A stretch of DNA of 64,000 bases from Anastatus disparis (lineage: Eukaryota; Arthropoda; Insecta; Hymenoptera; Eupelmidae), in contig JAFFSR010000292.1 of assembly GCA_017163975.1 (NCBI GenBank), positions 4,612,501-4,676,500 on the forward strand. The letters are read 5' to 3'. The number at the start of each line of letters is the position of its first letter. Position 1 is the stretch's first letter. The position numbers were made by a program, and so were the translations under genes. This document shows positions 20,716 through 43,545 of the stretch, piece after piece. Under the pieces are notes generated by a model that ran no database searches, was not told the DNA's origin, and saw only the letters and a program-made list of their open reading frames with translations.

Positions 20716-21250
20716 AGTGTTAGTAGAAAGGGGGCGAGAACTCCAGACAGTTGTGACGTCACAGAGGACCGCCATACTCGCCCCCGGGGGCGAGTATGTC
20801 GGTTTTGGGGGACGCGTATGCCGATTCGGTCTGCTGAGAGCCTTATCGCTCGGCCTTATCTCGCTTCTCGATAATCGGGAATTTCATGGAAAATAATAAT
20901 AAATAATAAATGTTAATAATAAATAATAAATGTTAATAATAATAAATGAAAAAATAAATGAAAAAATGAAAAATGTTAAAATCAGTAAATTATTGAAAAG
21001 AATTATTGAAAAAATTAGTAAAATTGAATTTTTTTAAGAAATAAGGATTTTTTGAGAGTTTGTCACTTGGTATAATTTTAGAATATTTCAAGATTTTAAT
21101 ATTATTGATATATTACCGATTTGTATATTTCATTGTATATATTTACCGATTTTGTATATTTTCCTGCATTTACGAATTTAAAGAGTGATATTTTACAAGT
21201 GGAAAAAAGAGAAAAACCCTGAAAATCAACACTACATTGTACAAGTGATG

Positions 21251-21252
<2 letters not shown>

Positions 21253-21328
<76 letters not shown>
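21253..21328. repeat. (TA)n microsatellite in left TIR
   Basis: About 75 bp of TA. The matching tract in the right TIR is where the Helitron inserted. Confidence 0.95.
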
Positions 21329-21330
<2 letters not shown>

Positions 21331-21569
21331 CTTTACAACTATGTGTGTCTGTGTAACCAGCTAGTATTAACGTATAAGCGTGTGTACAACAACGAGTGGA
21401 GATGTACGAGTGGTGGGGGTAACAGTAGCGCCAGAAATAGAATGACCCCCGTTAGAGCGTACGCTACACTTGTGTGGGTGCATGCGTACTCTAAAACTTG
21501 GGATGTTTATATTATGACCTATATTATGCTGCACGACCAGTGCATTCGCTCTCGACTACATTGCTTACC

Positions 21570-21572
<3 letters not shown>

Positions 21573-21612
<40 letters not shown>
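21573..21612. repeat. (CT)n microsatellite
   Basis: CT run mirrored by a longer GA run at 34648-34692 in the right TIR. Two long frames across it (SLSLSL repeats) are artefacts. Confidence 0.95.
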
Positions 21613-21615
<3 letters not shown>

Positions 21616-22418
21616 GTTTCTCCTCGTCGGAAAAGCCAAAGTACGTCGTACGGCGCCGAAGACTATGCCCTATAGAATACCCAATGACCGTCTTGCCCGG
21701 TATCTCTGTCCTTTTATATCGACTTTAACATGCACCTTATGCTTAGATGGTGTATGCGTTACACCAATGTATGAAAATACTTTTCTCAATTGATTATTAA
21801 AAAAAAATATATAGACCCCACGAAGAACGAGCTTCCCACGACGACGTCCCCCACCAACAGTGGAAACCGATAGCAAAAAAAGACACTAAACAAAAACCAC
21901 ACCCACGACTAGGCCCCTACACCGACTTAAATTAAGCACATAGACGCGGCACCACCGAACGTGTTGGGGACTCCCAAGAGAATTTCAGAAATTCCCCAGC
22001 CCCGACCCACGGAGCTAGTAATATACAATTCATTTTACATAATATTCCTCTTTTAGATGATAGAAAATTTTAATAATAAATGCTAATAATAAATAAATAT
22101 ATATCGATGATAATAAATTATTAAAAATTATATTTAAAAATTAGTAAAAATTGAAGAAAAATTTTAATTATAAGAATGAAATATTAACTTTAGAGAAAAA
22201 ATTATGGAAGGGGGGTATAGAAATAAATAGAGATATATTTGTTTGATACATTTATTTTTTATAAATTATTACAACGACGATACAAGTATATAAGTTTCGG
22301 AGTAATACGACTTTGCAAGTCTTACATGTATTTTTTATTTACATATATATTTAAAGTCAAAAAATATTGGAAGTTATTCACATACTCATACGTACACACG
22401 CACACACTGGCATACACA

Positions 22419-22937
22419 TTACATAATATTTTTTGCTTTAGACACTTGATTGCACTGGGCACATATAATTTCTTTTTTATTTTTTTGTTTCTTTTTTACA
22501 TTCATGATTCGGTTAAATAATATAAGGCTTAATCTATCATTATCCTTTGTATCGGTTGAAAATAACGTACAAAACATGTTAAGAGAATAATTATGAGACA
22601 TATAAAACAAAAAATCGACACAATACTGCCCACACACATCAGAATTAAGGTTCTGTAGTTGCTGTATGTTCCACTCGTACACTCGGCAGTTTCTTCTAAG
22701 GCGATCGATGTGATCTGGTACGGTTGGGGGTAATCCATAGCTGTCAAAGTAAGTCCCCTGTCCATCGGAATCGACGTAAATTGCAACCCAATGAGACCCT
22801 GGTTTTGAGCTTTCATCGAGATTAACTACAAGGGCACACGGTTTTTCCCAGATTAGAGGGATCTTGTCTGCAGGAAACACACCCACTGTCTTGGCAGGAA
22901 TCTTTTTGAGACCTTTCAGCACTTGCAACGAGTTCAT
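22419..22937 (-). CDS. Adenovirus-type cysteine protease (PRO)
   Basis: The frame is open from 22982, but the ATG at 22937 gives the expected family start. Domain landmarks in order: VGVFPADKIP; a His in SHWVAIYVD followed by the family's TYFDSYGLPP; and the nucleophile-type Cys in SDVCGQYC about 50 residues on. This is the adenain-like maturation protease that cleaves capsid and core proteins in Polintons and adenoviruses. The C-terminal ~45 residues lie inside the left TIR and are Lys-rich. It overlaps the end of the upstream 270-aa gene in another frame. The catalytic residues look intact. Confidence 0.85.
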   Translation of the reverse strand: MNSLQVLKGLKKIPAKTVGVFPADKIPLIWEKPCALVVNLDESSKPGSHWVAIYVDSDGQGTYFDSYGLPPTVPDHIDRLRRNCRVYEWNIQQLQNLNSDVCGQYCVDFLFYMSHNYSLNMFCTLFSTDTKDNDRLSLILFNRIMNVKKKQKNKKEIICAQCNQVSKAKNIM

Positions 22938-23634
22938 CACTGATATTATCGTAGATATTTTCTTCTGTAATATCGTTCTCACTGCTGCTTAAATTTTCAA
23001 TGACAGTAGTGGGGGTAGAGCAGTCGGTTGTCCGTGGTGATTCGTTATCTAGATCTGATTCTTTAATTTTATTATGAATATTGATGATTTTATTTTTTTC
23101 TTGACTATCGGGCTTGTCTGTTGGTTCTTCTTTTTGTATCGGTATATAAATTGTTTTCATGAGCCAGGCTTTCAACTTGTATACATGAGTCAAAGCACAG
23201 CTAAAATTTTCTCCTTTTATACCGTGATAGAAACAATAATGATTGCTTGTTCGTGGTAAATTTTTGAAGAAGGGACAGCTGTATTCTTCTAGATTAATAA
23301 TCTGTCGAGAAAGAATTCGTTCGAGTAACTCTTGTTTTTGCGCGCCTCGCACGAAAATACGTACTGCGTTCCTTGCGACTTCACGTAGTACATTGTATAC
23401 ATCGTCTAGATTTGATTCACCGTCGAACCACGCGATCCCGTGATGAAAGCACGATAGGTAGCTGTTTGTTGCTAACAATCCTCTTGTTAATTTTGAACAG
23501 CTGTAAGGCGGTTTTATCATCCAGTGTGAGACGAAATTACATTCGAATCCGAGAACAGCGATTTCTTTCGGTAAAAAATCTCCGTCTTTATCGTGAAATG
23601 CTTGAATGTCGATTATATAATTTATTTTATCCAT
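22822..23634 (-). CDS. Polinton-associated protein of unknown function, 270 aa
   Basis: Intact ORF. Conserved-looking parts are IDIQAFHDKDGDFLPKEIAV (~8-27), HHGIAWFDGES (~64-74), AVRIFVRGAQK (~90-100), INLEEYSCPFFKNL (~114-127) and CFYHGIKGENFSCAL (~133-147). The tail is acidic/Ser-rich and ends in a Cys cluster. Similar proteins accompany Polintons in insects, from memory. The spacing of D-x-Q, H and D/E residues faintly recalls DEDD-type exonucleases, but this is only a guess. It lies between the protease (overlapping it by ~115 bp) and the major capsid gene. Confidence 0.6.
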   Translation of the reverse strand: MDKINYIIDIQAFHDKDGDFLPKEIAVLGFECNFVSHWMIKPPYSCSKLTRGLLATNSYLSCFHHGIAWFDGESNLDDVYNVLREVARNAVRIFVRGAQKQELLERILSRQIINLEEYSCPFFKNLPRTSNHYCFYHGIKGENFSCALTHVYKLKAWLMKTIYIPIQKEEPTDKPDSQEKNKIINIHNKIKESDLDNESPRTTDCSTPTTVIENLSSSENDITEENIYDNISDELVASAERSQKDSCQDSGCVSCRQDPSNLGKTVCPCS

Positions 23635-23764
23635 AATGCTGGCGAAAAGATTACGACTGGACTGTAAAAAGGGTACAAACAGACTGATAGTTCGAAAAGT
23701 TTTTGTGTCATGTTTTCATTTATCCGAAGCGATAATGTAGAGTGGAGGGGGGGGAGGAAGATTT

Positions 23765-25077
23765 TTACGAGTTATAATCAACAACGATTTGACGGGCAGC
23801 GTCTATTTCTAATACGTTATCAAACTTTGCATAAACAACACAATTTATGGTTTTCGATAACGCTTTATCAAACCCTACTTCTATTCTAACTGTACCGTTT
23901 TTTACAAGATTCCAGTGACCGGCAAAGTGCGCTGAAAGATCTGGCGTAAGATCGAAAGCGAAAAGACAAAATCCATTTGCGTAATCCTGTCTATCGATAT
24001 CGTTTCCCTCGTTCATAAAATGTATCCCTGTGCCTGAGAATAATGTATGATATGCCTCTATGTATTGAGGTGATTTTTCATCAAACTGTGGTTGTAAGGG
24101 TTTACTCGGTATTTGTTGTCCATCAACGTAAAGAGACAAAAAGTTTATCGAATAATTTTTAAAATTAAACGGATTAAGTTTTTTGTCTCCGTTGAAGGCT
24201 TTGTTATCAACAAACCCGATTATAATTCTTTTCGGCAGCTGGCCGAGAATAACATTTTCTAAAGATTCCCCATTATACCGCTGTGCATAGTAAAGGTTTT
24301 TACTTCTACACGCGTAAGAGGATATTTGGCTGTAGTTGAACTCAGAGCTTTTGCATGAGCAATCATGACAGTTGGGCTTATTTTTACACGACGTACAAGT
24401 AAAGTTGCCTCTGTGATATGAACTCCGTAATTATTATCCGAAGCATCCATTAAACAAAAAATATCTTTGGAGCGAACTAGTCTCAAACGCATTTCGACCC
24501 CATTAAGCAGAAATCGATCTTGGTTAAAAACGTCGCAGTGTAAATGTCCTATTAAATCGACGGTCTTATTGTTTGATAAAAAGTTTTGTCTTATTCTTAA
24601 GCCTGTATTTTTTTCTGATCCGGGAAGTTCATCCATTTCACCCGCGGTATCGCTGGCCCATAAAACCGATGTTAAATGCGATTGTTTTGCAGCTGGTCCG
24701 TAGTTTAAGAGAGTTTCGAGATATGCTCTGTAAGGGTATGCGTTATTTGCTGGTGAAACTAATTTATTATTAAAGTATACATCAACCTGATTGAATAGCG
24801 AATGTAAAAAGTTGTTGATTGGTGCTACGAGACCGTCTGTCTCCTTCTTGTACGGTGTCAATTTTACACTCACTTTGAGCATGGTATGCGCTAGATCTAA
24901 GTAGTCCTCGTTTTGTGAATTTACACAGAATTCGATCGGACTCTCGTCGCTCAAAGACGAAACGGGTTTGTAAAATACCCATCTGCTCGATTCTATAGCT
25001 GTCTGTGTAGGAGGTAGCGAGAAAATATCAAGCTCTGTCTTGAGACAAGCTTCCGAGTGACTGTGTAAAAAAGACAT
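23765..25077 (-). pseudogene. Major capsid protein (double jelly-roll type), frameshifted
   Basis: Two frames make up one capsid gene: 25077-24259 (272 aa) and a second frame that is open through ~24260-23765. The first has the family's N-terminal region (ESSRWVFYKPVSS, then the SLFNQVDVYFNNKLVSP strand pair). The second has its C-terminal jelly-roll end (WNLVKNGTVRIEVGFDKALS, VYAKFDNVLEIDAARQIVVD). The family is the Polinton capsid protein related to adenovirus hexon-like double jelly rolls. The frames differ by a one-base shift just before the stop at 24259, so no full-length capsid can be made from this copy. It could also be a sequencing error; nearby genes carry similar single-base breaks. 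Confidence 0.82.
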
Positions 25078-25126
25078 TTTTAATCAAATATATCACCAAC
25101 TTTTTTTATTTTCTTGTTATTAATTT

Positions 25127-25537
25127 TCACTCTTTTTTTAATATTACGTTCTTTTTGTTTGTTTTATTTTTCTTCTTACTTGCACGTTTAACTTTAGTCA
25201 CTTTGGAGCGTTTTATTTTCGATTTTGAAGCGATCCGTCGCGCTGCGGAAGTGGGAGAAGACTGTCGATATCGTTTGCGTGTCGATGTTTTATACCCCGA
25301 TCCCTCCATCATTTTATTTATTTTATCGGCAGCTTTACGTTTAAGATTTTTTCCCGATTCGTTTATCCGATTCTTAAAAGATTCTTTAAAACTCATATTA
25401 TTTTCACCAATATCCCCAAGAATATTAGCGCCTGCGCGCAGAGCTTCCTTACCAACAGCACGAGCACCTTTAGCTAAGAACGGTAATGCACTCCGAAACA
25501 ATCCAGAAAACCAAGACCCCAATCCATGGCCACGCAT
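25127..25537 (-). CDS. Small basic core/minor virion-like protein
   Basis: The frame is open from 25603; the Met at 25537 precedes the conserved start GHGLGSWFSGLFR. A hydrophobic/amphipathic stretch follows (LPFLAKGARAVGKEALRAGA, ~15-35), then a Lys/Arg-rich tail of ~70 residues that could bind DNA. This matches a short protein found between capsid genes in Polintons, compared by others with adenovirus minor core or cement proteins. It sits between the two capsid genes in the same orientation, as expected for a virion component. No break seen. Confidence 0.65.
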   Translation of the reverse strand: MRGHGLGSWFSGLFRSALPFLAKGARAVGKEALRAGANILGDIGENNMSFKESFKNRINESGKNLKRKAADKINKMMEGSGYKTSTRKRYRQSSPTSAARRIASKSKIKRSKVTKVKRASKKKNKTNKKNVILKKE

Positions 25538-25626
25538 CCGCGGTGCACCAACAAAGACGTTTCTTACCCCTCTCCCCTCCCACTTGATGTTGATAATATA
25601 CATCGTGAATGCTCATAATTATTTCT

Positions 25627-26230
25627 TCAATACTCCCTTTTAAAATGTAGTGCTACCGTCACTGTCCCAAACTCGAATGCTATAGGTTTACCGAATTGAT
25701 CTCTTATATCTATATCAACAATTTGAAATCTATTGTTTAGAAGCGGAACATAATTAACAGGCGTAAATCTTTTGACTATTGTAAATCCAAAATTAAATTT
25801 ATTTGCTTCAATATTAACAATTCGTAACAGAGGCGCGTGAGTATCTCCTACTATTGACGGTTCGCAAAGATTAGAGTAAACAAAAAGTTGATCAGGAATA
25901 GCTCTTGATAGGCTCGCTGGCTGATCACCTACTAGCGTGAGGCCTGTATCGTTTGTCCCTTTTTGTTGCGTTGCTTCGTAAACTGCATAAGTACCATTTT
26001 CAAAACCTAAGATACGTTTAACGTTATCCGTGAATTCAGCTTCTTTTTTATTCTGAAACTGCTTTAAATACACAAAACCACCTTTTTCATTGTATGAGAG
26101 TTTTTCATGCACTTCGTTTTCGTGAAATTTAAGTAAACCATCGTTTATAGCATGAATAAGAGTGTGCATAGAGTTATACGTTCCGTGTTGAAACGAATTT
26201 ACTCCTTTACTTCCTTTATAGTCAGTTATT
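25627..26230 (-). pseudogene. Minor capsid (penton-like) protein, C-terminal part
   Basis: ~200 residues continuing a gene whose N-terminal part is at 26671-26871. Recognisable parts are the HEKLSYNEKGGFVYL region, QLFVYSNLCEPSIVGDTHAP and the C-terminal FEFGTVTVALHFKR. This is the minor capsid (single jelly-roll, penton) protein of Polintons. The two parts are separated by a 440-bp SINE, and the frame is the same on both sides of the SINE's 13-bp duplication. The gene was therefore intact when the SINE inserted. Confidence 0.78.
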
Positions 26231-26670
26231 AACCGACGCATTGGCCGAGTGGTTCGGCGCGCGCCAGGCGATCTGCAAAGTTAAGCAGCATTGGCGACGG
26301 TTAGTACTTGGATGGGTGACCGCTCCAAAGAACCCCGAGCGGCCTTTTCTGACTTTCTTTGTGTGACGGTCGCTTGGGTGTGCTGGCCACATGACAATGC
26401 GAGCGGAAGGTGTGGCAAATACGGTGTAGGTGCCCTTGTACAAGGGTCACCTAATACCGAATTCGCTATATACACCGACCCATTCCGGAGAAGGTTTTCC
26501 CTAAGCATTTATCCCACTGGGTTTGGCTACAGGGTTTTTCCTTCTTCACGGGCATTACCCCGGGCAAATGCGGAATGGGGTGGGAAGGGGGGAAAAATTT
26601 GGAATTGGAATAAATAAAGGTGTGGGGAATACGTAGAAGCCAATTACCGGCGTACGTGGAAGCCACCAAA
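26231..26670 (+). mobile_element. 5S rRNA-derived SINE
   Basis: Flanked by the 13-bp duplication ATAGTCAGTTATT (26218-26230 and 26671-26683). Bases ~26275-26330 match the 3' half of 5S rRNA, including the internal promoter (AAGTTAAGCAGCATTGG and GGTTAGTACTTGGATGGGTG). The 5' end (GGCCGAGTGGTTCGGCGCG) resembles a tRNA-type A box, so the head may be chimeric. The body is GC-richer than its surroundings. It interrupts the Polinton's minor capsid gene. Confidence 0.88.
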
Positions 26671-26871
26671 ATAGTCAGTTATTATTGTATCTTTAACTTG
26701 TAAATGAAGACTCGAGCACGGTATATGAATTTCAGAGATTCCAACAACCCACTTACCTATCAATTGTACTTGATGAGGTAATCGTGTTAAATAATTTGTA
26801 GTAGCGTTGTTTGGAAAATATTTTAAACTACTGTTGCTTGGTAGTACAATGGTAAAATCGTTTTGATTCAT
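26671..26871 (-). pseudogene. Minor capsid protein, N-terminal part
   Basis: From the ATG at 26871 (NQNDFTIVLPSNSSLKYFPN, then a stretch including VQLIGKWVVGISEIHIP), the N-terminal strands of the Polinton minor capsid protein. It ends where the SINE inserted. The start lies three bases past the integrase stop, so the genes are tightly packed. The rest is at 25627-26230. Confidence 0.78.
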
Positions 26872-26873
26872 TA

Positions 26874-27959
26874 TTACAGTTTTTTCAACTCCGAAGCGGG
26901 AACCCAAGAATTGAATTTATCGGGATATCCAACCCAACTTACGTAATACTGTTTTTTCGATCCTTTTCCTTTGCTACCTAATATCTTATCAATTTTAAAC
27001 TCTTGCTGCTCTACTCTTTCTTTATCAACGACAACAAGTTCTTCGGGATAAAAAAAACCTTCAATTTCTTCTCCCTGCAAGTCGTGTAACTCATAAATGA
27101 ATAAATTCTGTCTTTTTAAAACACGGAATATTTTAAATATTTCTTCACTCCATGATTTAGTTGCACCTTTTTCAAAAACGTTTTTTTCTCTACTTATACG
27201 TACATACTGTCCAGTTTTGAATCTAGGTTTTTTACGAACAGGCTGTCTCTGCTGTGCACGTTCAACTAAATTTTTTCTAGCTACACTCGCGTTATAAATA
27301 GTCACTGAAGCTGGTGGCATTTTTATAGTCGAATGAGGTGTCTTATTGTATGCGTCAACTATATGTTGCAAGACGTCTATATAACGTTTTGTATTTTTGA
27401 ACGTAAAATATCGATACATACGTTCTTTCAAGGTTCCGTTGAAACGTTCTACAACAGCCGCTTTAACATCAGGATTTGTAACTACACGATATCTTATATC
27501 ATTGTCTTTCAGAAATTTTTGTAATGCCCCTCCAACAAATTCTTTTCCACGATCGGTTTGAAGCATAGAAGGATAGCGGATTTTGTTGGTGTCTATTATT
27601 TTTTTAAAACCTTTAGTAACTTCCTGGCAAGTCTTATCGCGCAAAGGTTGTACCCACACGAATTTACTTAAAACGTCAATCACAACGAGTAAATAACCGA
27701 TGCCGTCATTATAATTTTTTAATGATGTTAATTGTATGAGATCTGCCTCCCATACTTGATCAATAGCGTCAACATCGTAATATAAGCGTGGGAATTTTCG
27801 ACGTATAGTTTTGTGTAAAGTGTATGTATCGTGCTTCGTTAGCCATTTTTTAATTTTTTCAGAAGAAAATTTTTTTTTATTTACTCTGATTAAATTTCGT
27901 GCTCCTGAAAACCCTGCTTCATGTTGTGGATCAAAATATTGTTTTTCTAAAATATCCAT
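26874..27959 (-). CDS. Retroviral-type integrase with chromodomain (INT)
   Basis: 361 aa, intact. The DDE catalytic core has its acidic residues in VWEADLIQL (~70), LQTDRGKEFV (~136) and AAVVERFNGTLKE (~172, spaced about 35 residues from the second Asp). An SH3-like C-terminal region follows (KFKTGQYVRISREK), then a chromodomain at the end (FKIDKILGSKGK, YYVSWVGYPDKFNSWVPASE). The N-terminal zinc-binding part is not obvious. The enzyme inserts the linear element and makes the 6-bp duplication. The chromodomain may steer insertion to modified chromatin. Its stop is three bases from the minor capsid start. Confidence 0.92.
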   Translation of the reverse strand: MDILEKQYFDPQHEAGFSGARNLIRVNKKKFSSEKIKKWLTKHDTYTLHKTIRRKFPRLYYDVDAIDQVWEADLIQLTSLKNYNDGIGYLLVVIDVLSKFVWVQPLRDKTCQEVTKGFKKIIDTNKIRYPSMLQTDRGKEFVGGALQKFLKDNDIRYRVVTNPDVKAAVVERFNGTLKERMYRYFTFKNTKRYIDVLQHIVDAYNKTPHSTIKMPPASVTIYNASVARKNLVERAQQRQPVRKKPRFKTGQYVRISREKNVFEKGATKSWSEEIFKIFRVLKRQNLFIYELHDLQGEEIEGFFYPEELVVVDKERVEQQEFKIDKILGSKGKGSKKQYYVSWVGYPDKFNSWVPASELKKL

Positions 27960-27960
27960 T

Positions 27961-28819
27961 TTAAATTAAATTAGTTAACCATTTTTTATTCGACTTTGGT
28001 GTTGAGGAAAACATGTACTTCTGTTTATTTTTCTTTTTTTCAGAGCTACTGTTGGGACTCTTTCCAGATAAAACAGTGTTATCTAAAAACGAAAAGAAAT
28101 TATCACTTTTATCACGTAATTTTGTTGAATCATTAACTTCGCTATCTTCTTTATTAGATGTTATACTATTTTGAAATTTTATTTTCTTATTCGAAGATTG
28201 TTTAACGTTGCTCAATTCCCACAATTCATCATTACCGACAAATTCGCGCGGTGTGTCGATATCTCGAAGTATCTTTGCAAACTGTTCTCTCCCCGCGGCT
28301 TTTACTTTTTTTCTATTCCGTAAAGCATCGTTTATTAAATCGATGATATTCGAATGTTGAATTTTTTCGCCATCTATATGTACAAGACCTTTTTCGTTCC
28401 ACGTAATGCGATCTTTGCTGGATTTTAAATAGTTTAATAATAATTCAGCTTTCTTTTTATATAAATTTGGGACGCTTTCTAATATTGAAAAACTGTCTAA
28501 AGCCTGCTTCTCATCTTCACTTGTTTTTAAAAGCGAAAGTTTTCGTTTTTCGTCGTCGACAAAAAAATAGATATCTCTGTAACGTTTTCAAGTAATCTTT
28601 CAGTTTTTCTTGTTCGTTTTCGTAAGTTGTAGAATCCAGAATTTTTTTCATTTCATTATCTAATCGGGATAACGTATTACCTACCGTTTGAGTAGATTCC
28701 AGTACAGTCGATCCTACACTAGTATCAGTAATTTTACGATCGTTATTTTTTTCATTTTCCCTCTGCATTCGTTCAAGTTGTTCTTTAGATAAGAGTATCA
28801 TTTTCTTTGCTCTCTCCAT
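27961..28819 (-). pseudogene. Conserved Polinton protein of unknown function, frameshifted
   Basis: One gene in two frames: 28819 to ~28565 (Gln/Glu/Lys-rich coiled-coil-like start, LSKEQLERMQRENEKNN) and ~28560 to 27961 (conserved part near 28500-28230 with NEKGLVHIDGEKIQ, SNIIDLINDALRNRKKV and REQFAKILRDIDTPREFVGN; then a Ser/Lys-rich tail). A seven-base A run (T on the coding strand) at 28561-28567 has one base too many. The same type of protein occurs in other insect Polintons; its role is not known to me. It ends one base before the integrase start. Confidence 0.62.
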
Positions 28820-28822
28820 TTT

Positions 28823-29167
28823 TTATTTTCTTATTATTAACGAGAACAATGTATCCAGTATAGGCTGTAATAAAAACGGTAAAAAACTCCCTCCCGTTTG
28901 AATTATGGTACGTTTTTTTACTTTCCAAGAATTTTTACTTTTTTTAGCTAATTTTCTTAAAATATTTTTATGTTTTTTTAATTTATTTTTCTCACACTCT
29001 TTTAAATTGACAGTACCTTTGAGTACATTTAACGCGCACTCACAAATGTGATTTATTAATTTTTTATCTGCTGAACGCAGCAATGCAACACGCTGATTTT
29101 TATCCGAGTGTCTTAGCGCCTGCAAGAGGGCAACATACTTTTTTTCAAACGGAGAGTTCCATAGCAA
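28823..29167 (-). CDS. Small conserved Polinton protein with hydrophobic C-terminus
   Basis: 114 aa. N-terminal two thirds are basic/helical (LLQALRHSDKNQRVALLRSA, HICECALNVLKG), followed by a Lys-rich linker and a hydrophobic end (GGSFLPFLLQPILDTLFSLI) that could be a membrane segment. Similar short proteins recur in Polintons of many animals, beside the ATPase, and show up in adintovirus-like genomes. The function is unknown; a virion membrane or core role is only a guess. It starts three bases past the end of the next gene. Confidence 0.62.
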   Translation of the reverse strand: MLWNSPFEKKYVALLQALRHSDKNQRVALLRSADKKLINHICECALNVLKGTVNLKECEKNKLKKHKNILRKLAKKSKNSWKVKKRTIIQTGGSFLPFLLQPILDTLFSLIIRK

Positions 29168-29257
29168 ACGTCAATCTCGCCGACTACTTTGGGGAGTGTC
29201 TTTCTCCATAGTCCGATCTAAACTGAATCGCTACGACGTGTGATAAAGCTTTTATTG

Positions 29258-29932: not shown

Positions 29933-30870
29933 GTTTGTTACTGATAAATATTTTAATAAAATAATATATTTACAATTATAATAATCAATCAGCGTCTCTG
30001 TAAGCCTTATAGTATGGGATCACCCGCGCCCAGAGCGCTCAAACTGCTAGCGGCGAAATAAGAAAGCTACTCGCGGGTTCGTAAGGCTGATAACCGCGCG
30101 CGTATCAGCCAAGTAAGCGGCGGCTCAAACTGCTAGCTAGATACGATAAGGCTTACGAGCGTGCGCGTGCGCCTACTAGCAGTACGAGCGACGGCACACG
30201 ACCAGCGCTGTTTGAAGCTATTCGATACGCTTGGGACTCCAGCGTTGTCTCTTTACGGCTCAAATTGCGTTACTAACAGCTCTAGTCTATAACTTGTAGT
30301 TTACCACCCTACTAGCTGCGGGAGATAAGTTAAAATTTATAGTTCACGAGTTGTCAAAATAAGTAGCCGAAAAAATAAAAAATGTGTTGTGGTTTAATAC
30401 ATTTATTTTTTGATAAAAATTATTACAATTATAGCAGTTTTAAAACTACACAGAATACGGTTTTACACACTAATACAAATATGAAATTATAAACTAAATG
30501 ATACACACAAAAACTTTATTTATCGAATAATTAATGTTACATTTATTTTTATAAAATTATTACAATTATATAAATTTCAATGCGCGCAGAATACAATTTT
30601 TACACACACTAATACAAATATGAAATTATAAAATAAATATTACACACAAAACTTTAATATCGATTATACTTGAAACTAATCGTTTACAATTTTTTAGTTT
30701 TAATATTAGCTTATACAAATGAGTCTTTATCGATTAGAAATCCATAACAATTTGGATCTCTCATTTTTAATAATAATAGTCTTTCGACAGTATCAAACTC
30801 TAAACGATCTTCACTTCGTCAGGCTACATCGGGTGAATTCAACTCCTTGTATCTGAACTTAACTTTGTAG
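29933..30870. promoter_or_regulatory. GC-rich hairpin region and ~130-bp tandem repeats
   Basis: 30000-30290 is GC-rich in an AT-rich neighbourhood. GTAAGCCTTAT (30000) pairs with ATAAGGCTTAC (~30150), GGCTGATA with TATCAGCC (~30083-30108), and GCTCAAACTGCTAGC occurs twice. From 30398 to 30655 two ~125-bp direct repeats follow, each ending in ACACTAATACAAATATGAAA and more. The region separates the packaging ATPase from the next minus-strand ORF. It could be a promoter or replication region, or a nested MITE. Confidence 0.45.
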
Positions 30871-31249
30871 TTACGGGTTGTAAGCTACAATTGACAAGTC
30901 GAGATAATTATTTATTCTTGACTGAAGTTGTGTCTCCACTACAGTCGCTTTTTTATTAATCGGCTCCCGCTCCGTTCCACAAAAGCTTTGTTTGAATTTT
31001 TCGTTGCATGTACTGTCACTACATCCGAGAGACATGGTAAAGCTTATACCTATATCCTGTGATATCCTTTCAACTAAATGTAGACGTTCGTGAGCATAAC
31101 AAAATATTCGCTCGTTACCCTCACCAGAAGCTATCAATCGACATACAGTATGATGAATGTCCCATACCTCTTTCACCGTCTTCTCGAAAAATCTTATTCA
31201 CGCCTTCTATCACGCTGATTAAGGCCGCTAGCACTAGTGTTGCTGTCAT
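30871..31249 (-). pseudogene. Predicted secreted Cys-containing protein, frameshifted
   Basis: ATG at 31249 begins a clean signal-peptide-like stretch (MTATLVLAALISVIEGVNK). At a five-base A run (31187-31191) the frame shifts, and the remaining ~100 codons run on in the other frame to 30871: VWDIHHTVC, NERIFCYAHERLHL, LGCSDSTCNEKF, SFCGTE. Six cysteines suggest disulphides. I do not recognise the family. It is not part of the usual Polinton gene set, so it may be captured cargo. The break may be a real mutation, a sequencing error, or a missed short intron. Confidence 0.45.
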
Positions 31250-32548
31250 TTTTTAAAAATTTCTTTTCAAAATAAAAACGAAAATAATCTTTTAATATTT
31301 TTAACACAGCTTGGCTATTGAGTCTCGATAAAATTATTTATCGAAAAGAAAAATATTTAATTTCACACTGTTAAAAATAATTCAAAACTGCACGAACAAA
31401 CACTGGATCAGTTAAAAATGCATGGTTTTTAAATAGCTGTAGGAGCGAACTTTACTTTGTAGAGGCGAAAAACTATTTGACGTGTATATTTCCTCTAAAA
31501 GAACTTTGGGAATATACTTAAGTAAAAAAAAAATGTGTCATTGAAAACCCTTAATATACCTCTTTTTAATATCATTACAAGTTTTCATAAAAGATCAAGG
31601 ACTAGCATGCTAACAGTTGTATTTGACCGGTTAAAAACATATGTATCGAATTTTGCTCAGTTTCCTATAAGCTTTTAATTTTTAACTCTTGATAAAACAT
31701 GTAACAACTTTCGGTATTCTCTTATTTTTAACAAACTAAACACTTCTTTATTTCAATACACTCACCCTTTGTCATACTTTTTTCTTAAAATGTTTCTTTT
31801 GTAAATTTTAAAATAGAAAATATTTCTTTACACTTTTTATTTTTAAAATTAAAAACTTTTCTTTGAACTTTTATTAATTTATAAAATAGAAAATTTATAC
31901 TCTCGTAAATATTGAAAAATCATTTTCACTTTGGATTATATTTTAACAAATATAATCTTATTTTAGTTCTTAAACTAAAAATTTTTCTCTAATCTTTTGA
32001 TTTTTAAAACTCAAAATTTAATCTTTCATTTTTTAAATGTATACTTTGAATTTTAAAATAGAAAATTTAGCTACATAGAAGGCTACTATAACAGCGAGTG
32101 CGCGCGAGGGATGTGCCTCATCAAAATTGCAAGCATTCTGATCGCGAGGCGGTAGCATTTTGAGCGCCACGCGATGTCCATCTTCTGCAAAGCTTATAGA
32201 GATATATATTATATATCGACTTTTAATCCCATAATATATTCAATGCTCTCTGTCGGTGTTTTACTGACTTGAAATATTTTCCATCTACTCGTACGCGAGA
32301 TAAAAATATACATAAACTAGATAAAAGATTATCGAAAACATTCTATTGCTTTCACACCACATCTCGATATATGCGTATACCCTATAGGGTTCAGTCACAC
32401 AGTTTTCTGATTCTTCAACAGTGACACAACGTGATTACTCGAACAAACGTCTTATCGTAATTGGATACTTTTGACGAGTGTAGAATAGTATAATTGTGAA
32501 AATTACGGCTTTTTCAATTTCGGGGTTTGCGGTCTAACATACACGTGT
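31250..32548. other. Gene-free stretch upstream of plus-strand gene
   Basis: AT-rich at 31250-32060, then more mixed sequence (32070-32500) with GCGCGAGG-type words before the plus-strand ORF. Promoter sequence is likely near 32300-32540 but no specific site can be assigned. Confidence 0.4.
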
Positions 32549-33466
32549 GTGAAGCAATTTTCAAGTGAAAATATAGTGGTTGCGTCGTCTAAAATGGCTC
32601 AAGCTATGGTGAAAAGAAAAATAGATTTTACGAGTTCTCTGGAAACTGAAAATAATAAGCCATCGAAAAAAATTACAATGGCCGAAACTTATACTGATAA
32701 GTCTAAAACATATTCAAACGCTAATTTACTTGCAACCACTTATCCGCTCAATAACACAGGCAGTGAAAGAGCAATAGTCGGATTAAAATATAATCAAGAG
32801 AATAAAACCTTTTTATCGATGATACAACTAACAAATAATGAAAATTTAAACGGATTGACTTTGGATTCATCAAATTGGTGCCGACTACAAAATTGTTTTC
32901 GATATATTTGTTCGTATTTCAAACGAAAAAACATTAAACATAACAACACTCCAATAAAAATTGAACTTGAAGATATAGATGTAACATTCTCATCATCTTT
33001 CGCTACAAAAGCAATTATTTTTCATAAACAAAGTAAGTGCAAGAATGACGCACAAAACAACTGTGAGAAAAGAAAAAATTATTCGCCTGCCATGATTATG
33101 CAAAAAAACACATTTTACGGTTTTAAAAACGCAGCTATCTGCATCGATGATAGATTTCGACGTAATCAGCGTATTGTGCTACAAGTTAATGACTGTAAGG
33201 ACTATATACTTCAAGAATTAACAGTTTTAGTTAATGATACCGATTTACGAAAGGAAAACAGCGATCTCGTTGTGAAAAAGATATTACACAACAATATGTT
33301 TAAAATTCATAAGATTGTAAGAGATAAATTCAATGTTTCAATACACAAAATTTTTCTCGAATTTTATTTTGATATTGTTTATTTAGAATTAGTTCTGCTT
33401 CACTCCAAACTATTTTATGATGAACTTATAGAGAAACAATCTAACCAATTTTTATTTGAATCTTAA
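32549..33466 (+). CDS. Unrecognised Polinton plus-strand protein, ~300 aa
   Basis: Intact ORF. ATG at 32549 or, more likely, 32594 (MAQAMVKRKIDFTSS). A basic, Ser-rich N-terminus is followed by a central part with ERAIVGLKYNQENKTFLSMI and LDSSNWCRLQNCFRYICSYF (~70-130), whose strand-strand-helix pattern resembles single-stranded-DNA-binding folds only in general. The C-terminal half is Lys/Asn-rich and helical. It is transcribed away from the packaging ATPase cluster and ends ~220 bp before the right TIR. It could be a replication or regulatory protein. I do not recognise it. Confidence 0.5.
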   Translation: MKQFSSENIVVASSKMAQAMVKRKIDFTSSLETENNKPSKKITMAETYTDKSKTYSNANLLATTYPLNNTGSERAIVGLKYNQENKTFLSMIQLTNNENLNGLTLDSSNWCRLQNCFRYICSYFKRKNIKHNNTPIKIELEDIDVTFSSSFATKAIIFHKQSKCKNDAQNNCEKRKNYSPAMIMQKNTFYGFKNAAICIDDRFRRNQRIVLQVNDCKDYILQELTVLVNDTDLRKENSDLVVKKILHNNMFKIHKIVRDKFNVSIHKIFLEFYFDIVYLELVLLHSKLFYDELIEKQSNQFLFES

Positions 33467-33591: not shown

Positions 33592-33783
33592 ATGCATAAT
33601 TTATTATTAACTATTATTGCTTTTTTATTTCTATTTATTTCCTTTTTTATAAATTTTGTCATCTGTTTATTGAGAAGCAAGATAATGTTTGTACGTTATT
33701 TTCAACCGATACAAAAGAATAATGATAGATTAAGCCTTATATTATTTAACCGAATCATGAATGTAAAAAGAAACAAAAAATAA
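33592..33783 (+). CDS. Small predicted membrane protein (63 aa)
   Basis: Starts MHNLLLTIIAFLFLFISFF, a single strong hydrophobic segment of ~28 residues, then a short basic tail. The tail (from ~residue 33) is encoded inside the right TIR. Whether it is expressed is unknown; composition alone supports it weakly. Confidence 0.3.
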   Translation: MHNLLLTIIAFLFLFISFFINFVICLLRSKIMFVRYFQPIQKNNDRLSLILFNRIMNVKRNKK

Positions 33784-33944
33784 AAAAGAAATTATATGCG
33801 CCCAGTGCAATCAAGTGTCTAAAGCAAAAAATATCATGTAATGTGTATGCCTGTGTGTGCGTGTGTACGTATGTGAATGTGAATAACTTCCAATATTTTT
33901 TTTTTTTGTTACCATACTTAGTTGTTATCAAGACACCATTAAAG

Positions 33945-34118
33945 ATGGGTCAGGCACCGAGCTCGGGGAACGCTGGCGATCGCACTCCTCTAATCGGAAA
34001 AAATGACAGTAAAAAGTCAGAAAATCAAACAAAAGACTCACAATGGAAACAGTATTCACAAAAAATTTCTACAAACACATACTCTATCCCTGAAAGAAAT
34101 GGGTACAAAAAGTTTTGA
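33945..34118 (+). CDS. 57-aa ORF with N-myristoylation-like start
   Basis: Begins MGQAPSSGNAGDRTPLIG: Gly2 with Ser at position 6/7 is the pattern used for N-myristoylation. The rest is hydrophilic and Lys/Ser/Gln-rich. It lies in the piece present only in the right TIR. Short and without a family match I can name, so coding is plausible, not proven. Confidence 0.35.
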   Translation: MGQAPSSGNAGDRTPLIGKNDSKKSENQTKDSQWKQYSQKISTNTYSIPERNGYKKF

Positions 34119-34644
34119 CTTTAAATATATATGTAAATAAAAAATAAGACTTGCAAAGTCGTATTACTCCGAGACTTATATACTTGTATCGTCGTTGTAA
34201 TAATTTTATAAAAATAAATGTATCAAACAAATATATCTCTATTTATTTCTATACCCCCTTCCATCATTTTTTCTCTAAAGTTAATATTTCATTCTTATAA
34301 TTAAAATTTTTCTTCAATTTTTACTAATTTTTAAATATAATTTTTAATAATTTATTATCATCGATATATATTTATTATTAGCATTTATTATTAAAATTTT
34401 CTATCATCTAAAAGAGGAATATTATGTAAAATGAATTGTATATTACTATATATTTTTTTTTAATAATCAATTGAGAAAAGTATTTTCATACATTGGTGTA
34501 ACGCATACACCATCTAAGCATAAGGTGCATGTTAAAGTCGATATAAAAGGACAGAGATACCGGGCAAGACGGTCATTGGGTATTCTATAGGGCATAGTCT
34601 TCGGCGCCGTACGACGTACTTCGGCTTTTCCGACGAGGAGAAAC

Positions 34645-34696
<52 letters not shown>

Positions 34697-35385
34697 GGTA
34701 AGCAATGTAGTCGAGAGCGAATGCACTGGTCGTGCAGCATAATATAGGTCATAATATAAACATCCCAAGTTTTAGAGTACGCATGCACCCACACAAGTGT
34801 AGCGTACGCTCTAACGGGGGTCATTCTATTTCTGGCGCTGCTGTTACCCCCACCACTCGTACATCTCCACTCGTTGTTGTACACACGCTTATACGTTAAT
34901 ACTAGCTGGTTACACAGACACACATAGTTGTAAAGCTTATATATATATATATATCTACCTATATTATATAGTTATATGAACCAAAATTCAGTCGTTGCCC
35001 CCCCACATCCCCCCCACGCCCCCACAGCCCCCACATGATTTTTATTAATTAAATAACGTAAATTTACGTTATTTTATGTTATCGATCATTACCCCCCCCC
35101 ACAGACCCCCCACTAACCCCCCCCCCACAACTTTTTAGAACCATCAAATACTGCATAATATAGTTTTATATTTTTTTATTATATTTTATTTATGTATAAT
35201 ATTACATAAAAATATAAAAATTTTAATTTTTTTTTTGTTGAAAACTCGAAAGTAGTTGCATAAAATTACAATTTATAATATTTAAAATGAAAAACATGTG
35301 CCTCATCAGATATCTTATTACCATTTTTTACATAGTTTATCTGAAATTAATAAATATAAATTTAAATTAATTCTATTACAATTCC

Positions 35386-35735
35386 TCAACACTATAATTA
35401 ATTCATTTGTTGAAAACATAATGATTTTTAATAATTTATTCATATTATAAATATTTTATTGTATTAAAATAAAAATAAGCATATAGTGTTGAGGATTCAG
35501 ATTTCCACACCACCTTACATTATAAACCTTTAATAGTATTGATTTATACAACTTTTAAAATTAATTGATATTAATATTTATGTTTAAATTTATATAACTT
35601 TCAAGATTAATAACTATTTATATTTATTTATTGAATAGAAAAAGGTGTATAATATAGCTGTACCGTTATTGGCGCGTTAGATTTTTTGATTAGTGGAAAC
35701 CCTCGCCAGGAGCCCTAAAAACCACTTTTATATAT
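35386..35735. repeat. Internal inverted repeat of the Helitron, left copy
   Basis: Inverted match to 39010-39353. It contains a hairpin with CCTCAACACTATA ends (35386-35497), CACACCACCTTACATT, and a well-conserved GGCGCGTTAGATTTTTTGAT followed by CTCGCCAG. Confidence 0.8.
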
Positions 35736-35876
35736 TTTTTAATATATTTTATTTTATATTATATAAATATTGATATTAAAGAAAAATAAAATAATAAATA
35801 ATATAAATTATTATAAGAAATTTAAAAAAATAAACTATTTCAAATAATATTAAAAATTTTTTAATATTATTTGAAA

Positions 35877-37772
35877 TACCACAATATTATATTTTCAATT
35901 CTAACACAAAATCTTGGATAAAACGATCAAAAAATAGAAAAAACATAGCTATTGGTAGATTAAATGTAGTATCTCCTAAAGATAGTGAACGTTTTTTTTT
36001 AAAATTAATATTAAATAGAATAAAAGGTGCAACATCTTATACAGATTTACGAACTCACGAAAATATTACTTATAATACTTATAAAGAAACAGCTTTAGCA
36101 ATGAATTTAATTGAGCACGAAAATGAAATTTATTATATTTTTGAAGAAGCATGTCAAGTTATGTTACCAATACAACTACGTAAATTTTTTGCATGTTTTT
36201 TACTATGTGAAAATATTCAAGGTAAAATTATTTGGAACAAATATAAAAATTTTTTACAGAAGATTTTAAAGATAATAAAGAAAATAAAGCTTTATCACAT
36301 ATTAATCAAATATTAAATTTAGAAGATATGTCATGTGAAAATTTTGGTTTACCAGAACCAAATAAAACATACATTGAAGAAAATGAAGAAATTAATGATG
36401 AAATTATAAATTTTAGTAAAAAAAAATTTGATAAAATGTATAAACAATTAAATAATGATCAAAAACAAATTTTTGAAAAAATAATAAATAATAAACAAAA
36501 AATATTTTTCATAGATGGACCAGGAGGTTCCGGAAAAACTTTCTTATACAAAACATTAATATATTATTATATAAGCATTAAAAAAAAATTTTTATCGATG
36601 GCTTGGACCGGAATAGCTTCAATTTTATTACCTAAAGGTTTAACAAGTCACAGAACTTTTAGATTACCATTGGATTTAAATAACATTGAAAGCGCATTTT
36701 TAAAATTTAATTCAGATAAAAAAAAATTAAGAGAAACAGATATAATTATATGGGATGAAGCATCTATGATTCCTAAAAAAGCTTTAGAAATCGTAGACAA
36801 AACTTTAAAAGATGTTTGTCATAATGATAAAAGTTTTGGTGGAAAAATAATTATTTTAGGTGGAGATTTTCGACAAATTCTACCAGTATTAAAATATGGA
36901 AGAAGAAATACTATAATTGAAGAGACTATAAAATATTCAAATCTTTGGCCCTTATTTCATATTTTTAAATTAAAAAAAAACATAAGATCTAATAATGACA
37001 GTTTCTCTTCATTTTTATTAAATATAGGAGAAGGAAACATTAATCCATTTATTATTCCAGAAGAATGGAAAACTAATGACGTCTGTGCCAAAATTTATAA
37101 AAACATTAACGAAAATTATTGTTTTTCAAAAAATGTCATTTTGAGTACACATAATGAAGATGTAAATATTTTAAATAACAGAATTTTAAAATTAATTAAG
37201 AATGAAACAAAAACTTATTATAGCATTGACTATGCAACATACAAAGGTGTAGATCAAACGGATGATAATATTCATTTGAATTATCCAATAGAAATGTTAA
37301 ATAACATAAGAGAAGGATTACCTCCACACGAACTGAAATTAAAAGTAAATACCATAATTATGTTAATTCGAAATTTAAGTATAAAAATGGATTATGTAAT
37401 GGAACGCGATTAAAAATAACTAAATTATTCAAATATAACATAGAAGCACAAATAATTACTGGAGAAAATAAAGGAAATAAAGTTTTTATACCACGTATTA
37501 CATTAAACACTAATGAATCATCATCTTTACCATTTATTTTATATAGAAAACAATTTCCTGTTATATTAGCTTTTGCTATAACAATTAATAAATCTCAAGG
37601 CCAAAGTTTCGAAAATATAGGAATATTCATCAAAAAACCTTTATTTTCTCACGGGCAATTATATGTTGCTCTTTCACGTTGTAAAAATGTAAATAAAATA
37701 TATATTCAAAATGAATCGGAAAACAAAGATATTATACCTAACATAGTTTGGAAAGAAATATTAGAAAAATAA
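35877..37772 (+). pseudogene. Helitron helicase (Pif1-type), Rep part missing, frameshifted
   Basis: Reading starts just after a perfect hairpin (35833-35878) with the region that in full Helitron proteins links Rep to helicase (SWIKRSKN, IGRLNVVSPKDSERFFL, GATSYTDLRTHE). After a frameshift near 36260 comes the helicase: Walker A FFIDGPGGSGKTFLYKTL, Walker B IIIWDEASMIPKKAL, LGGDFRQILPVL. A second shift near 37390 at a poly-A run precedes the C-terminal motifs (ITINKSQGQSF, LYVALSRCKNVN). A functional Helitron protein also has an HUH Rep nuclease; none is visible upstream. The enzyme would unwind DNA during rolling-circle transposition. This copy is inactive. Confidence 0.85.
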
Positions 37773-37920
37773 TTTTATTATAATTTAACAAAAATTTAAT
37801 GTTATTTAAATAAATTTTTTATAAATTATTTTATTAATTAAACTTTATTTTTTTTCAGGTTATATTTATATTAATTATAAACATTAAAAATTTTTAATAA
37901 TATATAAATAAAAAAACATA

Positions 37921-38373
37921 ATGGAATGGAATTCAATTAATGATGTTGAAATTGACAATGTTAATGATCAACAAATGATTGAATGGGATCCAATAGAAGG
38001 TCATTATGTTGAAATTAACAATGTCAATGATCAACAATTGATGGAAAATTTAAATGATCAAATTGAAGAACATTTAAATTTCCAAGAAGAATATGAATAT
38101 TATTTAGAAAGTCTAGATAATAATAGTTCAATAAGCAATACAATAATTTCTAAATTAAATAATATTATTAATTCGTATATAGAGGAAAATAATGAACAAT
38201 TTGAATTTAAAAATTGGAATGAAGTACCAGAGTATTATAAATATTATGCGAATGAAATTATAAAATATAAAATAAATATAAGTGAACCAATAGCAGAATA
38301 TTACTTTAATCAAAGTCATGAAATTTATTCTAATTATTTATTAAGATTAGCTAACATTATTAATAAAATATGA
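37921..38373 (+). CDS. Acidic 150-aa ORF in the Helitron, unknown
   Basis: Intact ORF, rich in Asn, Glu and Ile. It begins with two copies of a short repeat (EWNSINDVEIDNVNDQQMI and then EWDPIEGHYVEINNVNDQQL). No family is recognised and no membrane segment seen. It lies downstream of the helicase in the same orientation and shares its extreme AT bias, so it may be a second Helitron gene or captured cargo. Confidence 0.45.
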   Translation: MEWNSINDVEIDNVNDQQMIEWDPIEGHYVEINNVNDQQLMENLNDQIEEHLNFQEEYEYYLESLDNNSSISNTIISKLNNIINSYIEENNEQFEFKNWNEVPEYYKYYANEIIKYKINISEPIAEYYFNQSHEIYSNYLLRLANIINKI

Positions 38374-39009
38374 AAAATTAAAATAAATCATAAATATTTA
38401 AATATATAATAATAAATTTAAAAAAATTTTTAAATTATTAATATTATTAAAAACAAAAAAAATTAGAATATTTAAAAATTAACTAAAATATTTAAAAGTT
38501 ATGATTATTTAAAATTTATAAAACGAAATTTTAATAAATAAATAATTTAACTAATAACAACAATAAATAAAAAATTCATATTCATAACTTTTATACAGGT
38601 AAATATAGTATAAGTAAGTATAAAATAATTTAAAATTATTTTATTTATTTATTTGTTATATAAATAACTAAATTTTAAATAAAATATGATATAATGATCA
38701 TGTAATAATTTCATTTACAATATCATAATAAATTTATAAATTTTAGTATGAATTTTTGATATATCTCATAAAATGTTTAAAATGAGAAAAAAGATATAAA
38801 AAAGGAATTATAACAAAATAATCCTATAAATCTTATAAAACTCAAAATCATTACGATATATCAAATAATATACTAAATTATCAACAAAATTTTCAATATA
38901 TTTTAAACTAATGATCATTAATATCATAACAATAATAACACTATTTTTAAGTTATACTACATATAATTAAATATATTATAAATATTTAAAATAAAATATA
39001 TTTTATAAG
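38374..39009. other. Gene-free AT-rich Helitron interior
   Basis: Nothing recognised. Extremely AT-rich with short direct repeats. Confidence 0.5.
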
Positions 39010-39353
39010 ACTAAGTGGTTTTTAGGGCTACTGGCGAGGGTTTCCACTAATCAAAAAATCTAACGCGCCATCAAGGTACCTCTATGTTACACACCTTTTT
39101 TAAAACTTCATATATTATATAATTATATTAACAAAAAAATTTTACAAATTTATTCAAAATTAATATTGATTTAAAAAATAAATATTTATAAGTTATATTG
39201 ATAAAGGTTTGAAATGTAAGGTGGTGTGGAAAGCCGAACCTCAACACTATATATCTCTTCTTTTTTTATAAAAATAAAAAAATAATGAATTAATAATAAT
39301 TATATATATCTCTTCTTTTTGAAATATAATGAACAAAATAGTGTTGAGGTATT
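39010..39353. repeat. Internal inverted repeat of the Helitron, right copy
   Basis: Inverse of 35386-35735, with AAGTGGTTTTTAGGGCT at the inner end and a CCTCAACACTAT hairpin at the outer end. Confidence 0.8.
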
Positions 39354-39557
39354 TTTATATAAAGTAACATAAATAATTAATATTAATAGAAATAGTAAAA
39401 ATATTTATTTAGAGTTTAGATAAAAATTATATTATATAATAAATTAAATAATATTACATTATATAATATAATATTAATAATAAATGTTTAATATATAATT
39501 ATATTTATAGCATAACTGGGGTTATGAGCAGCGCGAGCAGGGGGGTACCCCCCCTAG

Positions 39558-39589
<32 letters not shown>

Positions 39590-40093
39590 TATACATATAT
39601 ACATACATCACTTGTACAATGTAGTGTTGATTTTCAGGGGTTTTCTCTTTTTTCCACTTGTAAAATATCACTCTTTAAATTCGTAAATGCAGGAAAATAT
39701 ACAAAATCGGTAAATATATACAATAAAAATATACAAATCGGTAATATATCAATAATATTAAAAACTTGAAATATTCTAAAATTATACCAAGTGACAAACT
39801 CTCAAAAAATCCTTATTTCTTAAAAAATTCAATTTTACTAATTTTTTCATTTATTTTTTCATTTATTATTATTAACATTTATTATTTATTATTAACATTT
39901 ATTATTTATTATTATTTTCCACGAAATTCCCGATTATCGAGAAGCGAGATAAGGCCGAGCGATAAGGCTCTCAGCAGACCGAATCGGCATACGCGTCCCC
40001 CAAAACCGGCATACTCGCCCCCCGGGGGGGAGTATGGCGGTCCTCTGTGACGTCACAACTGTCTGGAGTTCTCGCCCCCTTTCTACTAGTGTT

Positions 40094-43510: not shown

Positions 43511-43545
43511 TTTGGCTTTTAAGAACTCTGTCAAATTCAATTATT

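What the first reader, a model, noticed from the sequence alone, without database searches (positions are those of the whole stretch)
20716..40093. Polinton/Maverick lacking polymerase B, inserted in a transposase gene
Exact 6-bp duplication and AGT ends define the full element; capsid, protease, integrase and packaging genes are present, but PolB, the hallmark replication gene, is absent with no space for it. The element may be a deletion derivative, or a lineage that uses a helper or host polymerase.
Basis: partly seen in the sequence, partly recalled or inferred. Interest (0 to 1): 0.75.

Follow-up and report, generated by a model that had tools for sequence, protein, structure and literature searches.

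The report
Virus-like element split into two halves
A virus-like mobile element in this probably insect genome lacks its own DNA-copying enzyme, and a second element with nearly identical ends carries that enzyme but lacks the coat and insertion genes, so the two look like halves of one two-part system.

Summary
In detail: a Polinton-type element at 20722-40087 (AGTGTT duplicated, AGT ends) has capsid, protease-like, integrase and packaging ATPase genes but no PolB. Corrections: its inverted repeats are about 1.86 kb, and the right one is split by a 4.6 kb Helitron (34954-39557); the element proper is 14.8 kb. The loss is a lineage trait: five sister copies, read over their right halves, lack PolB too, and none of 66 integrase or 66 capsid loci of this lineage lies near a listed PolB.

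A second element type carries the missing gene. "B" elements (15.1 and 15.8 kb in two copies) share the ends (95-98% identical over 240 nt) and one rapidly evolving gene, and carry PolB in the interval that differs in A, but no detected integrase or capsid gene and only a stub of the ATPase. Of 23 elements defined by this terminus, 12 carry A genes, 8 B, none both, 3 neither.

Best reading: a two-component Polinton, A making particles and inserting DNA, B copying it, through shared ends. The gene partition is shown; cooperation is inferred. A vanished complete helper is the main rival. The open-access searches named listed no bipartite Polinton.

The parts
20716..20721 (.). target-site duplication AGTGTT, left copy
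40088..40093 (.). target-site duplication AGTGTT, right copy
20722..22577 (+). left terminal inverted repeat (about 1.86 kb; 21815-22015 has no counterpart in the right arm)
39558..40087 (-). right terminal inverted repeat, outer part
   Evidence: adjoins the inner part in four sister copies
33685..34953 (-). right terminal inverted repeat, inner part (33902-34112 has no counterpart in the left arm)
34954..39557 (+). Helitron inserted in the right TIR between A and T: 5' TCTACC, 3' hairpin and CTAG (motifs recalled); PIF1 helicase frames; not part of the Polinton
   Evidence: absent from the four sister copies whose fetched stretch spans the site
22419..22988 (-). adenain-like cysteine protease gene (PRO); its 3' end lies inside the TIR
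   Evidence: weak matches
22822..23715 (-). open frame of 297 aa, function unknown
23765..25083 (-). major capsid protein, broken by a frame shift in this copy (frames 24259-25083 and 23765-24430)
25127..25612 (-). open frame of 161 aa, function unknown
25627..26280 (-). open frame of 217 aa, candidate minor capsid protein by position only (not tested)
26874..27965 (-). integrase, rve core plus C-terminal chromodomain, open in this copy
27961..29170 (-). three small frames with relatives in the complete Polintons of the same genome
29258..30019 (-). A32-type packaging ATPase
30382..32276 (.). interval that stands where partner 'B' elements have a block of about 7.5 kb with PolB
30871..31197 (-). 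frame of 108 aa; a sister copy has a 178 aa version with a hydrophobic start
32594..33466 (+). ORF325 (290 aa from its ATG; 325 aa stop to stop from 32489): gene present in both A and B elements, no match in the protein database searched

Best explanation
The window element is the 'A' half of a two-component Polinton. A carries particle and insertion functions (capsid, protease, integrase, packaging ATPase). A partner 'B' with the same terminal repeats carries the PolB. In cells holding both, B's PolB would copy both molecules from the shared ends, and A's integrase, ATPase and capsid would insert and package both. Shown: reciprocal gene content, shared ends, 6-bp duplications around B elements in which no integrase was detected, and mixing of A and B sequences at the ends. 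Inferred: that the two work for each other in trans, that B molecules are packaged by A proteins, and that ORF325, kept by both, acts at the ends.
For: Two B copies read as separate stretches have no match (E 0.01) to A's integrase, capsid, candidate minor capsid or other A genes except an ATPase N-terminal stub, the protease 3' end inside the repeat, and ORF325. Seven B frames have no match in the window or five A right halves. Genome lists: 0 of 24 PolB-B loci near integrase-A or capsid-A; 0 of 66 capsid-A near any of 100 PolB loci; control family C 28 of 76 PolB loci near capsid or integrase, Fisher p 1.4e-4. Of 23 elements defined by the terminal 169 nt, 12 A, 8 B, 0 both, 3 neither. Terminal 240 nt: window A against C222 B 97.9-98.3%; C222 B against C272 B 95.4-95.8%. 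B duplications: TGAATA exact, AGGGTC/GGGGTC five of six. ORF325 A against B: dN 0.21-0.22, dS 0.45-0.50. A-type loci with B-type ORF325: C259, C340, C218.
Against: No virion, episome or transcript was seen. Many copies of both types carry stops, so the system may be extinct here. Complete Polintons of another lineage live in the same genome and could supply every function. The searches score only the best candidates (40 of 263 for the ends), so a rare complete element with these ends could be missed. Only two B copies were read end to end, and only right halves of five A sisters. The pattern is not tidy: 23 of 66 capsid-A loci have no listed integrase-A within 15 kb, 7 of 24 PolB-B loci no listed B-type ORF325, and 27 close ORF325 loci no integrase-A within 15 kb. 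Copy numbers are unequal (about 66 and 24 loci).
Confidence: 0.58

Rival explanations
1. A and B are two kinds of defective derivative of a complete Polinton (perhaps a free virus) with the same ends, now lost from or unsampled in this genome. That helper supplied everything, and A and B never needed each other.
For: Non-autonomous derivatives are common among DNA transposons (general knowledge). B keeps an ATPase stub, and A keeps the stretch that flanks the PolB block in B, as expected of deletions from one parent. Three end-defined elements carry neither set of marker genes, so further derivatives exist.
Against: No complete element with these ends among 23 end-defined elements, and no co-location near any of 66 integrase-A or 24 PolB-B loci. 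Both halves keep multi-gene sets rather than only ends. The gene shared by A and B has diverged to dS 0.45-0.50 under constraint, and an old A-like locus at 78% capsid identity exists (C218), so the partition is not fresh.
Confidence: 0.27
2. A and B are both mobilised by the complete Polintons of the other lineage (called C here) in the same genome, whose PolB and integrase act on their ends.
For: C elements are numerous and many of their frames are open. A's integrase and ATPase are 57-65% identical to theirs.
Against: No listed C-family gene falls inside the 23 elements that bear the window's terminus (list cut by hand). The window's TIR had no nucleotide match in two C stretches, but whether these reach the C termini is not known. 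A's ATPase and B's PolB show third-position excess against C, that is, they were kept for their proteins, which mere passengers of C would not need.
Confidence: 0.1
3. The window element is one chance deletion product with no wider meaning.
For: This copy is clearly decayed: broken capsid frame, Helitron in the right TIR.
Against: Five of five sisters lack PolB over the right halves read; 48 of 66 integrase-A loci have ORF325 within 12 kb, 45 of them closer than 6 kb, median 4527 bp.
Confidence: 0.03

Closest known systems
Polinton/Maverick elements (adintoviruses)
   Same: 6-bp duplication, long TIRs with AGT ends, rve-chromo integrase, A32-type ATPase, protease-like gene, double jelly-roll capsid; size near the 13.3-14.6 kb of three adintoviruses in PMC8363768 (passages)
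   Different: In the adintoviruses described there PolB, integrase and capsid genes sit on one molecule; here PolB is absent from A, and capsid and integrase were not detected in B
Bidnaviridae (Bombyx mori bidensovirus) and the segmented bidna-like Vesanto virus
   Same: Linear DNA, Polinton-derived PolB, conserved terminal structure between segments, gene set divided over molecules (PMC4061559 section 5 and passages; PMC8363768 passages)
   Different: Bidensovirus is an ssDNA virus with segments of 6.5 and 6 kb and parvovirus-derived capsid and helicase; here the molecules are about 15 kb with a Polinton capsid and integrase
Meldviruses that lack recognisable PolB and integrase (PMC11071296, passages)
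   Same: Adintovirus-class virion genes without PolB
   Different: Those lack the integrase too (one named example carries a primase-helicase and tyrosine recombinase); A keeps its integrase, no replicase was found in it, and PolB sits on a partner with the same ends
Complete 'C' Polintons of the same genome
   Same: Order integrase-small frames-ATPase-PolB; main proteins about 50-66% identical
   Different: PolB follows the ATPase on the same molecule (two copies read in part); C termini not located

Membership tests
Polinton/Maverick | long TIRs and 6-bp target duplication | tested here: met
   also both B copies, one duplication exact and one five of six
Polinton/Maverick | retroviral-type integrase with chromodomain | tested here: met
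   not detected in the B elements read
[quoted passage not shown]
   absent from the window element and from the right halves of five sisters; present in B (PF03175 E 2.4e-41)
Polinton/Maverick | double jelly-roll major capsid protein | tested here: met
   model of a homologue (80% identical over the window's piece) matches PBCV-1, iridovirus, Sputnik and mavirus capsid proteins, Foldseek E 1e-12 to 1e-15
Polinton/Maverick | A32/FtsK-type packaging ATPase | tested here: met
   Pox_A32 33.1 bits, cut-off 22.8
Polinton/Maverick | adenain-like protease | tested here: inconclusive
   Peptidase_C5 E 0.009, below cut-off; ASFV S273R E 0.0017
Bidnaviridae | PolB on one of two linear segments with shared terminal repeats | tested here: met
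   as an arrangement of integrated copies only
Bidnaviridae | parvovirus-type capsid and superfamily 3 helicase | tested here: not met
   capsid is double jelly-roll; no such helicase among Pfam matches of the A and B frames scanned
multipartite virus in the strict sense | both molecules packaged and transmitted | not testable with these tools
   no particle or episome data

The most novel reading that the evidence does not exclude
The first bipartite Polinton: an integrating double-stranded DNA virus of insects whose genome is divided over two separately integrating molecules of about 15 kb with common ends, an intermediate in kind between Polintons and the segmented bidnaviruses.
Probability: 0.42. 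Interest if true: 0.9.

Novelty: new variant of a known kind. Interest (0 to 1): 0.8.

Why it matters
Polintons are described as self-synthesising: polymerase, integrase and capsid on one molecule. A lineage that keeps these on two mutually exclusive molecules with common ends would show that a Polinton can become multipartite while still integrating. It would bear on how segmented bidnaviruses arose from Polinton-derived replicons, and it gives an integrated record in which the rise of a divided DNA-virus genome can be dated and traced.

Tried and rejected
Copy-specific deletion: rejected, since five of five sisters lack PolB over the right halves read. Long-spaced loci as possible complete elements: C309 (11.7 kb) and C346 (12.1 kb, just outside the 12 kb limit) were sampled with 4 kb each; no PolB there, and the extra frames look like retroelements by eye; the rest of those gaps, and C2 and C381 (7.1 and 7.8 kb), were not read. 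PolB absence judged alone: rejected as insufficient because only the best candidates are scored. ORF325 structure: model of no use (pLDDT 36). ORF325 homologues: none at E 0.001. Viral contigs with the capsid profile: none confirmed. Rfam: nothing at gathering score in 20000-41000. Genome search with the 372 aa B frame: not completed.

Rows dropped before counts: 2 of 114 (second pieces), leaving 66 A and 46 C loci, 16 of 125 (second pieces), leaving 109, 6 of 57 (second pieces), leaving 24 B and 27 C, none of 141 (66 A, 75 C), 34 of 74 (short internal matches). From, 73 loci were used of 198 matches (its listing was cut). In one search, 24 rows stand for 23 elements because C35 has two left ends; 7 of the 23 have only one scored end and were given a nominal 16.5 kb span; C342 pairs over 33 kb; the integrase and C-family lists there were cut by hand, and the rows left out lie outside the spans by eye.
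Full report
What is there. The window lies in a 939 Mb genome held as G000 (C285:4612501-4676500). The element runs from 20722 to 40087 between AGTGTT duplications. Its inverted repeats are long: left arm 20722-22577, right arm 40087-39558 continued at 34953-33685, 96.0% identical over 1714 aligned columns. The break in the right arm is a Helitron, 34954-39557, with 5' TCTACC, 3' hairpin and CTAG (end motifs recalled), set between A and T, carrying a PIF1 helicase. Without it the Polinton is 14,762 bp.

Gene content. On the minus strand from left to right: protease-like, a 297 aa frame, capsid protein, two small frames, integrase with chromodomain, three small frames, ATPase. The capsid protein is broken in this copy (frames of 274 and 221 aa, against 437-447 aa in many relatives). 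A homologue 80% identical to the window's piece folds as a double jelly roll (mean pLDDT 76; Foldseek to iridovirus, PBCV-1, Sputnik and mavirus capsid proteins at E 1e-12 to 1e-15). To the right is a 108 aa frame and, on the plus strand next to the TIR, ORF325. ORF325 has no Pfam or NCBIfam match near its cut-off, no PHROG at E 0.01, and nothing at E 0.001 in the protein database searched.

No PolB. The longest frames from eight PolB loci of the same genome (some partial) had no match in the window better than E 0.27. Right halves of five sister copies were read (L039-L043). From integrase to ATPase and onward they match the window in blocks of about 91-99% identity, apart from local repeats; four of the five keep ORF325, and the fifth (C253) has lost it to a deletion with an insert; two others carry unrelated inserts of about 1.3 kb. 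None shows PolB at E 1, and the four whose stretch spans the Helitron site lack the Helitron. Across the genome, 48 of 66 integrase loci of this lineage have ORF325 within 12 kb in the window's orientation, 45 of them closer than 6 kb, median 4527 bp. Two loci with long spacing, C309 and C346, were sampled with 4 kb each: no PolB, retroelement-like frames by eye. So PolB is missing from the lineage, not from this copy alone.

The partner. ORF325 has a second group of relatives at 47-61% identity (34 of 109 loci). Two of these, on C272 and C222, were read in separate neighbouring stretches (L054-L059). Each is an element with the window's own TIR. The last 240 nt of the window are 97.9-98.3% identical to C222 and 95.0-96.7% to C272, while the two B copies are 95.4-95.8% identical to each other. 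C272 B spans 15,829 bp with the exact duplication TGAATA; C222 B spans 15,078 bp with AGGGTC/GGGGTC, five of six. Between the ends lie a plus-strand frame (372 or 303 aa), a stub of the ATPase (about 43 residues), a 218 aa frame, PolB (PF03175 E 2.4e-41) with an N-terminal part related to that of complete Polintons, a 145-161 aa frame, and ORF325; C272 also has a 156 aa plus-strand frame. PolB is interrupted in both. No integrase, capsid or candidate minor capsid gene was detected at E 0.01; of the protease only the 3' end, which is part of the repeat, is there (the last 1-2 kb, which are TIR, were compared as DNA). Conversely none of seven B frames has a match in the window or the five A right halves. 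The stretch 29883-30381 of A is 86-89% identical to B, and similarity resumes at about 32277; between these points B has about 7.5 kb, PolB included, and A 1.9 kb.

Genome-wide partition. Using lists (15 kb): 43 of 66 capsid-A loci lie near an integrase-A; 0 of 66 lie near any of 100 PolB loci; 0 of 24 PolB-B loci lie near capsid-A or integrase-A, and 17 of 24 lie near B-type ORF325. One PolB-B locus (C205) has a C-family capsid gene within 20 kb. In the control family C, 28 of 76 PolB loci lie near a capsid or integrase gene, a low figure because the lists hold only the best-scoring matches; Fisher p 1.4e-4, with copies not fully independent. In one search full matches fall into a group at 76-100% (B) and one at 52-54% (C). 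Searching with the terminal 169 nt gave 40 scored full-length ends of 263 candidates, defining 23 elements (16 with both ends scored, 7 with one): 12 with A genes, 8 with PolB-B, 3 with neither (C206, C302, C329), none with both, none with listed C genes.

Time and constraint. ORF325 of A and B differ at dN 0.21-0.22 and dS 0.45-0.50, so the gene has been kept for its protein in both while the flanking repeats stayed nearly identical. The simplest reason is exchange of ends between A and B, also seen in A-type loci with B-type ORF325 (C259 and C340; C218, an old copy). ATPase-A and PolB-B against family C differ most at third codon positions (73/43/130 and 333/244/546). Changes private to single integrase copies are close to the neutral mix (75 synonymous, 189 non-synonymous, 19 stops of 283; expected 23.6%, 71.1%, 5.4%), while changes shared by copies lean to synonymous (26, 41, 5 of 72): present copies are decaying, the source was weakly constrained. 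Three loci (C285, C255, C321) give identical capsid pieces with the same 274 aa open frame, which hints that a copy with a broken capsid gene multiplied; this was not followed up.

How it would work. Shown: reciprocal gene sets, common ends, insertion with 6-bp duplications of elements in which no integrase was detected. Inferred: PolB made from B starts on the common ends of both; A's integrase inserts both; A's ATPase and capsid package both; the similar lengths (14.8 kb against 15.1-15.8 kb) fit one package size. PMC4061559 (section 5 read) proposes that the N-terminal part of Polinton PolB may serve as terminal protein; B has such a part, so ORF325 need not be it. An ORF325 role at the ends is a guess from its place and its presence in both.

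What is known. Papers seen: PMC4061559 (section 5 and passages), PMC8363768, PMC11071296, PMC6431247 and PMC5803895, the last four as passages only. They describe Polintons and adintoviruses with PolB, integrase and capsid genes on one molecule, segmented bidnaviruses, and meldviruses lacking PolB and integrase. Searches of an open-access library held 324, 189, 141, 0, 5, 28 and 2 papers; of these 10, 15, 15, 0, 5, 15 and 2 were listed, and none showed a bipartite Polinton in title or start of abstract. Subscription papers were not searched.

Limits. Two B copies were read end to end, and only right halves of five A sisters. The lists are lower bounds: 23 of 66 capsid-A loci have no listed integrase-A, 7 of 24 PolB-B loci no listed B-type ORF325, and 27 close ORF325 loci no integrase-A within 15 kb. 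C termini were not found. No expression or particle data exist. The host is inferred.

Noticed in passing
window 34954-39557: Helitron with PIF1 helicase frames but no Rep domain among the frames scanned with Pfam; related helicase pieces also lie outside the C222 B element (L057:1221-2038).
   Followed up: partly
window 42260-47310: Non-LTR retrotransposon with a zinc-knuckle frame and a 1254 aa endonuclease-RT-RNase H frame, next to the Polinton.
   Followed up: no
window 40326-41090 and joined flanks: Old gene frame, already holding a stop, that the Polinton entered; resembles a transposase only by recall.
   Followed up: partly
window 5510-6724: Frame with a weak Retrotrans_gag match (E 3e-4, below cut-off).
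   Followed up: no
window 30871-31197; L043: Minus-strand frame found in A copies and not in the two B copies; a sister copy keeps 178 aa with a hydrophobic start resembling a signal peptide.
   Followed up: partly
G000 C285, C255 and C321:3681806: Three loci with identical capsid pieces and the same 274 aa open frame, suggesting that a copy with a broken capsid gene multiplied.
   Followed up: no
G000 C206, C302, C329: Elements with the same ends and A-type ORF325 but no listed integrase, capsid or PolB gene: possibly a third kind of derivative.
   Followed up: no
L042 (G000 C253): Sister copy whose ORF325 stretch is replaced by an insert with a 355 aa frame of unknown kind.
   Followed up: no
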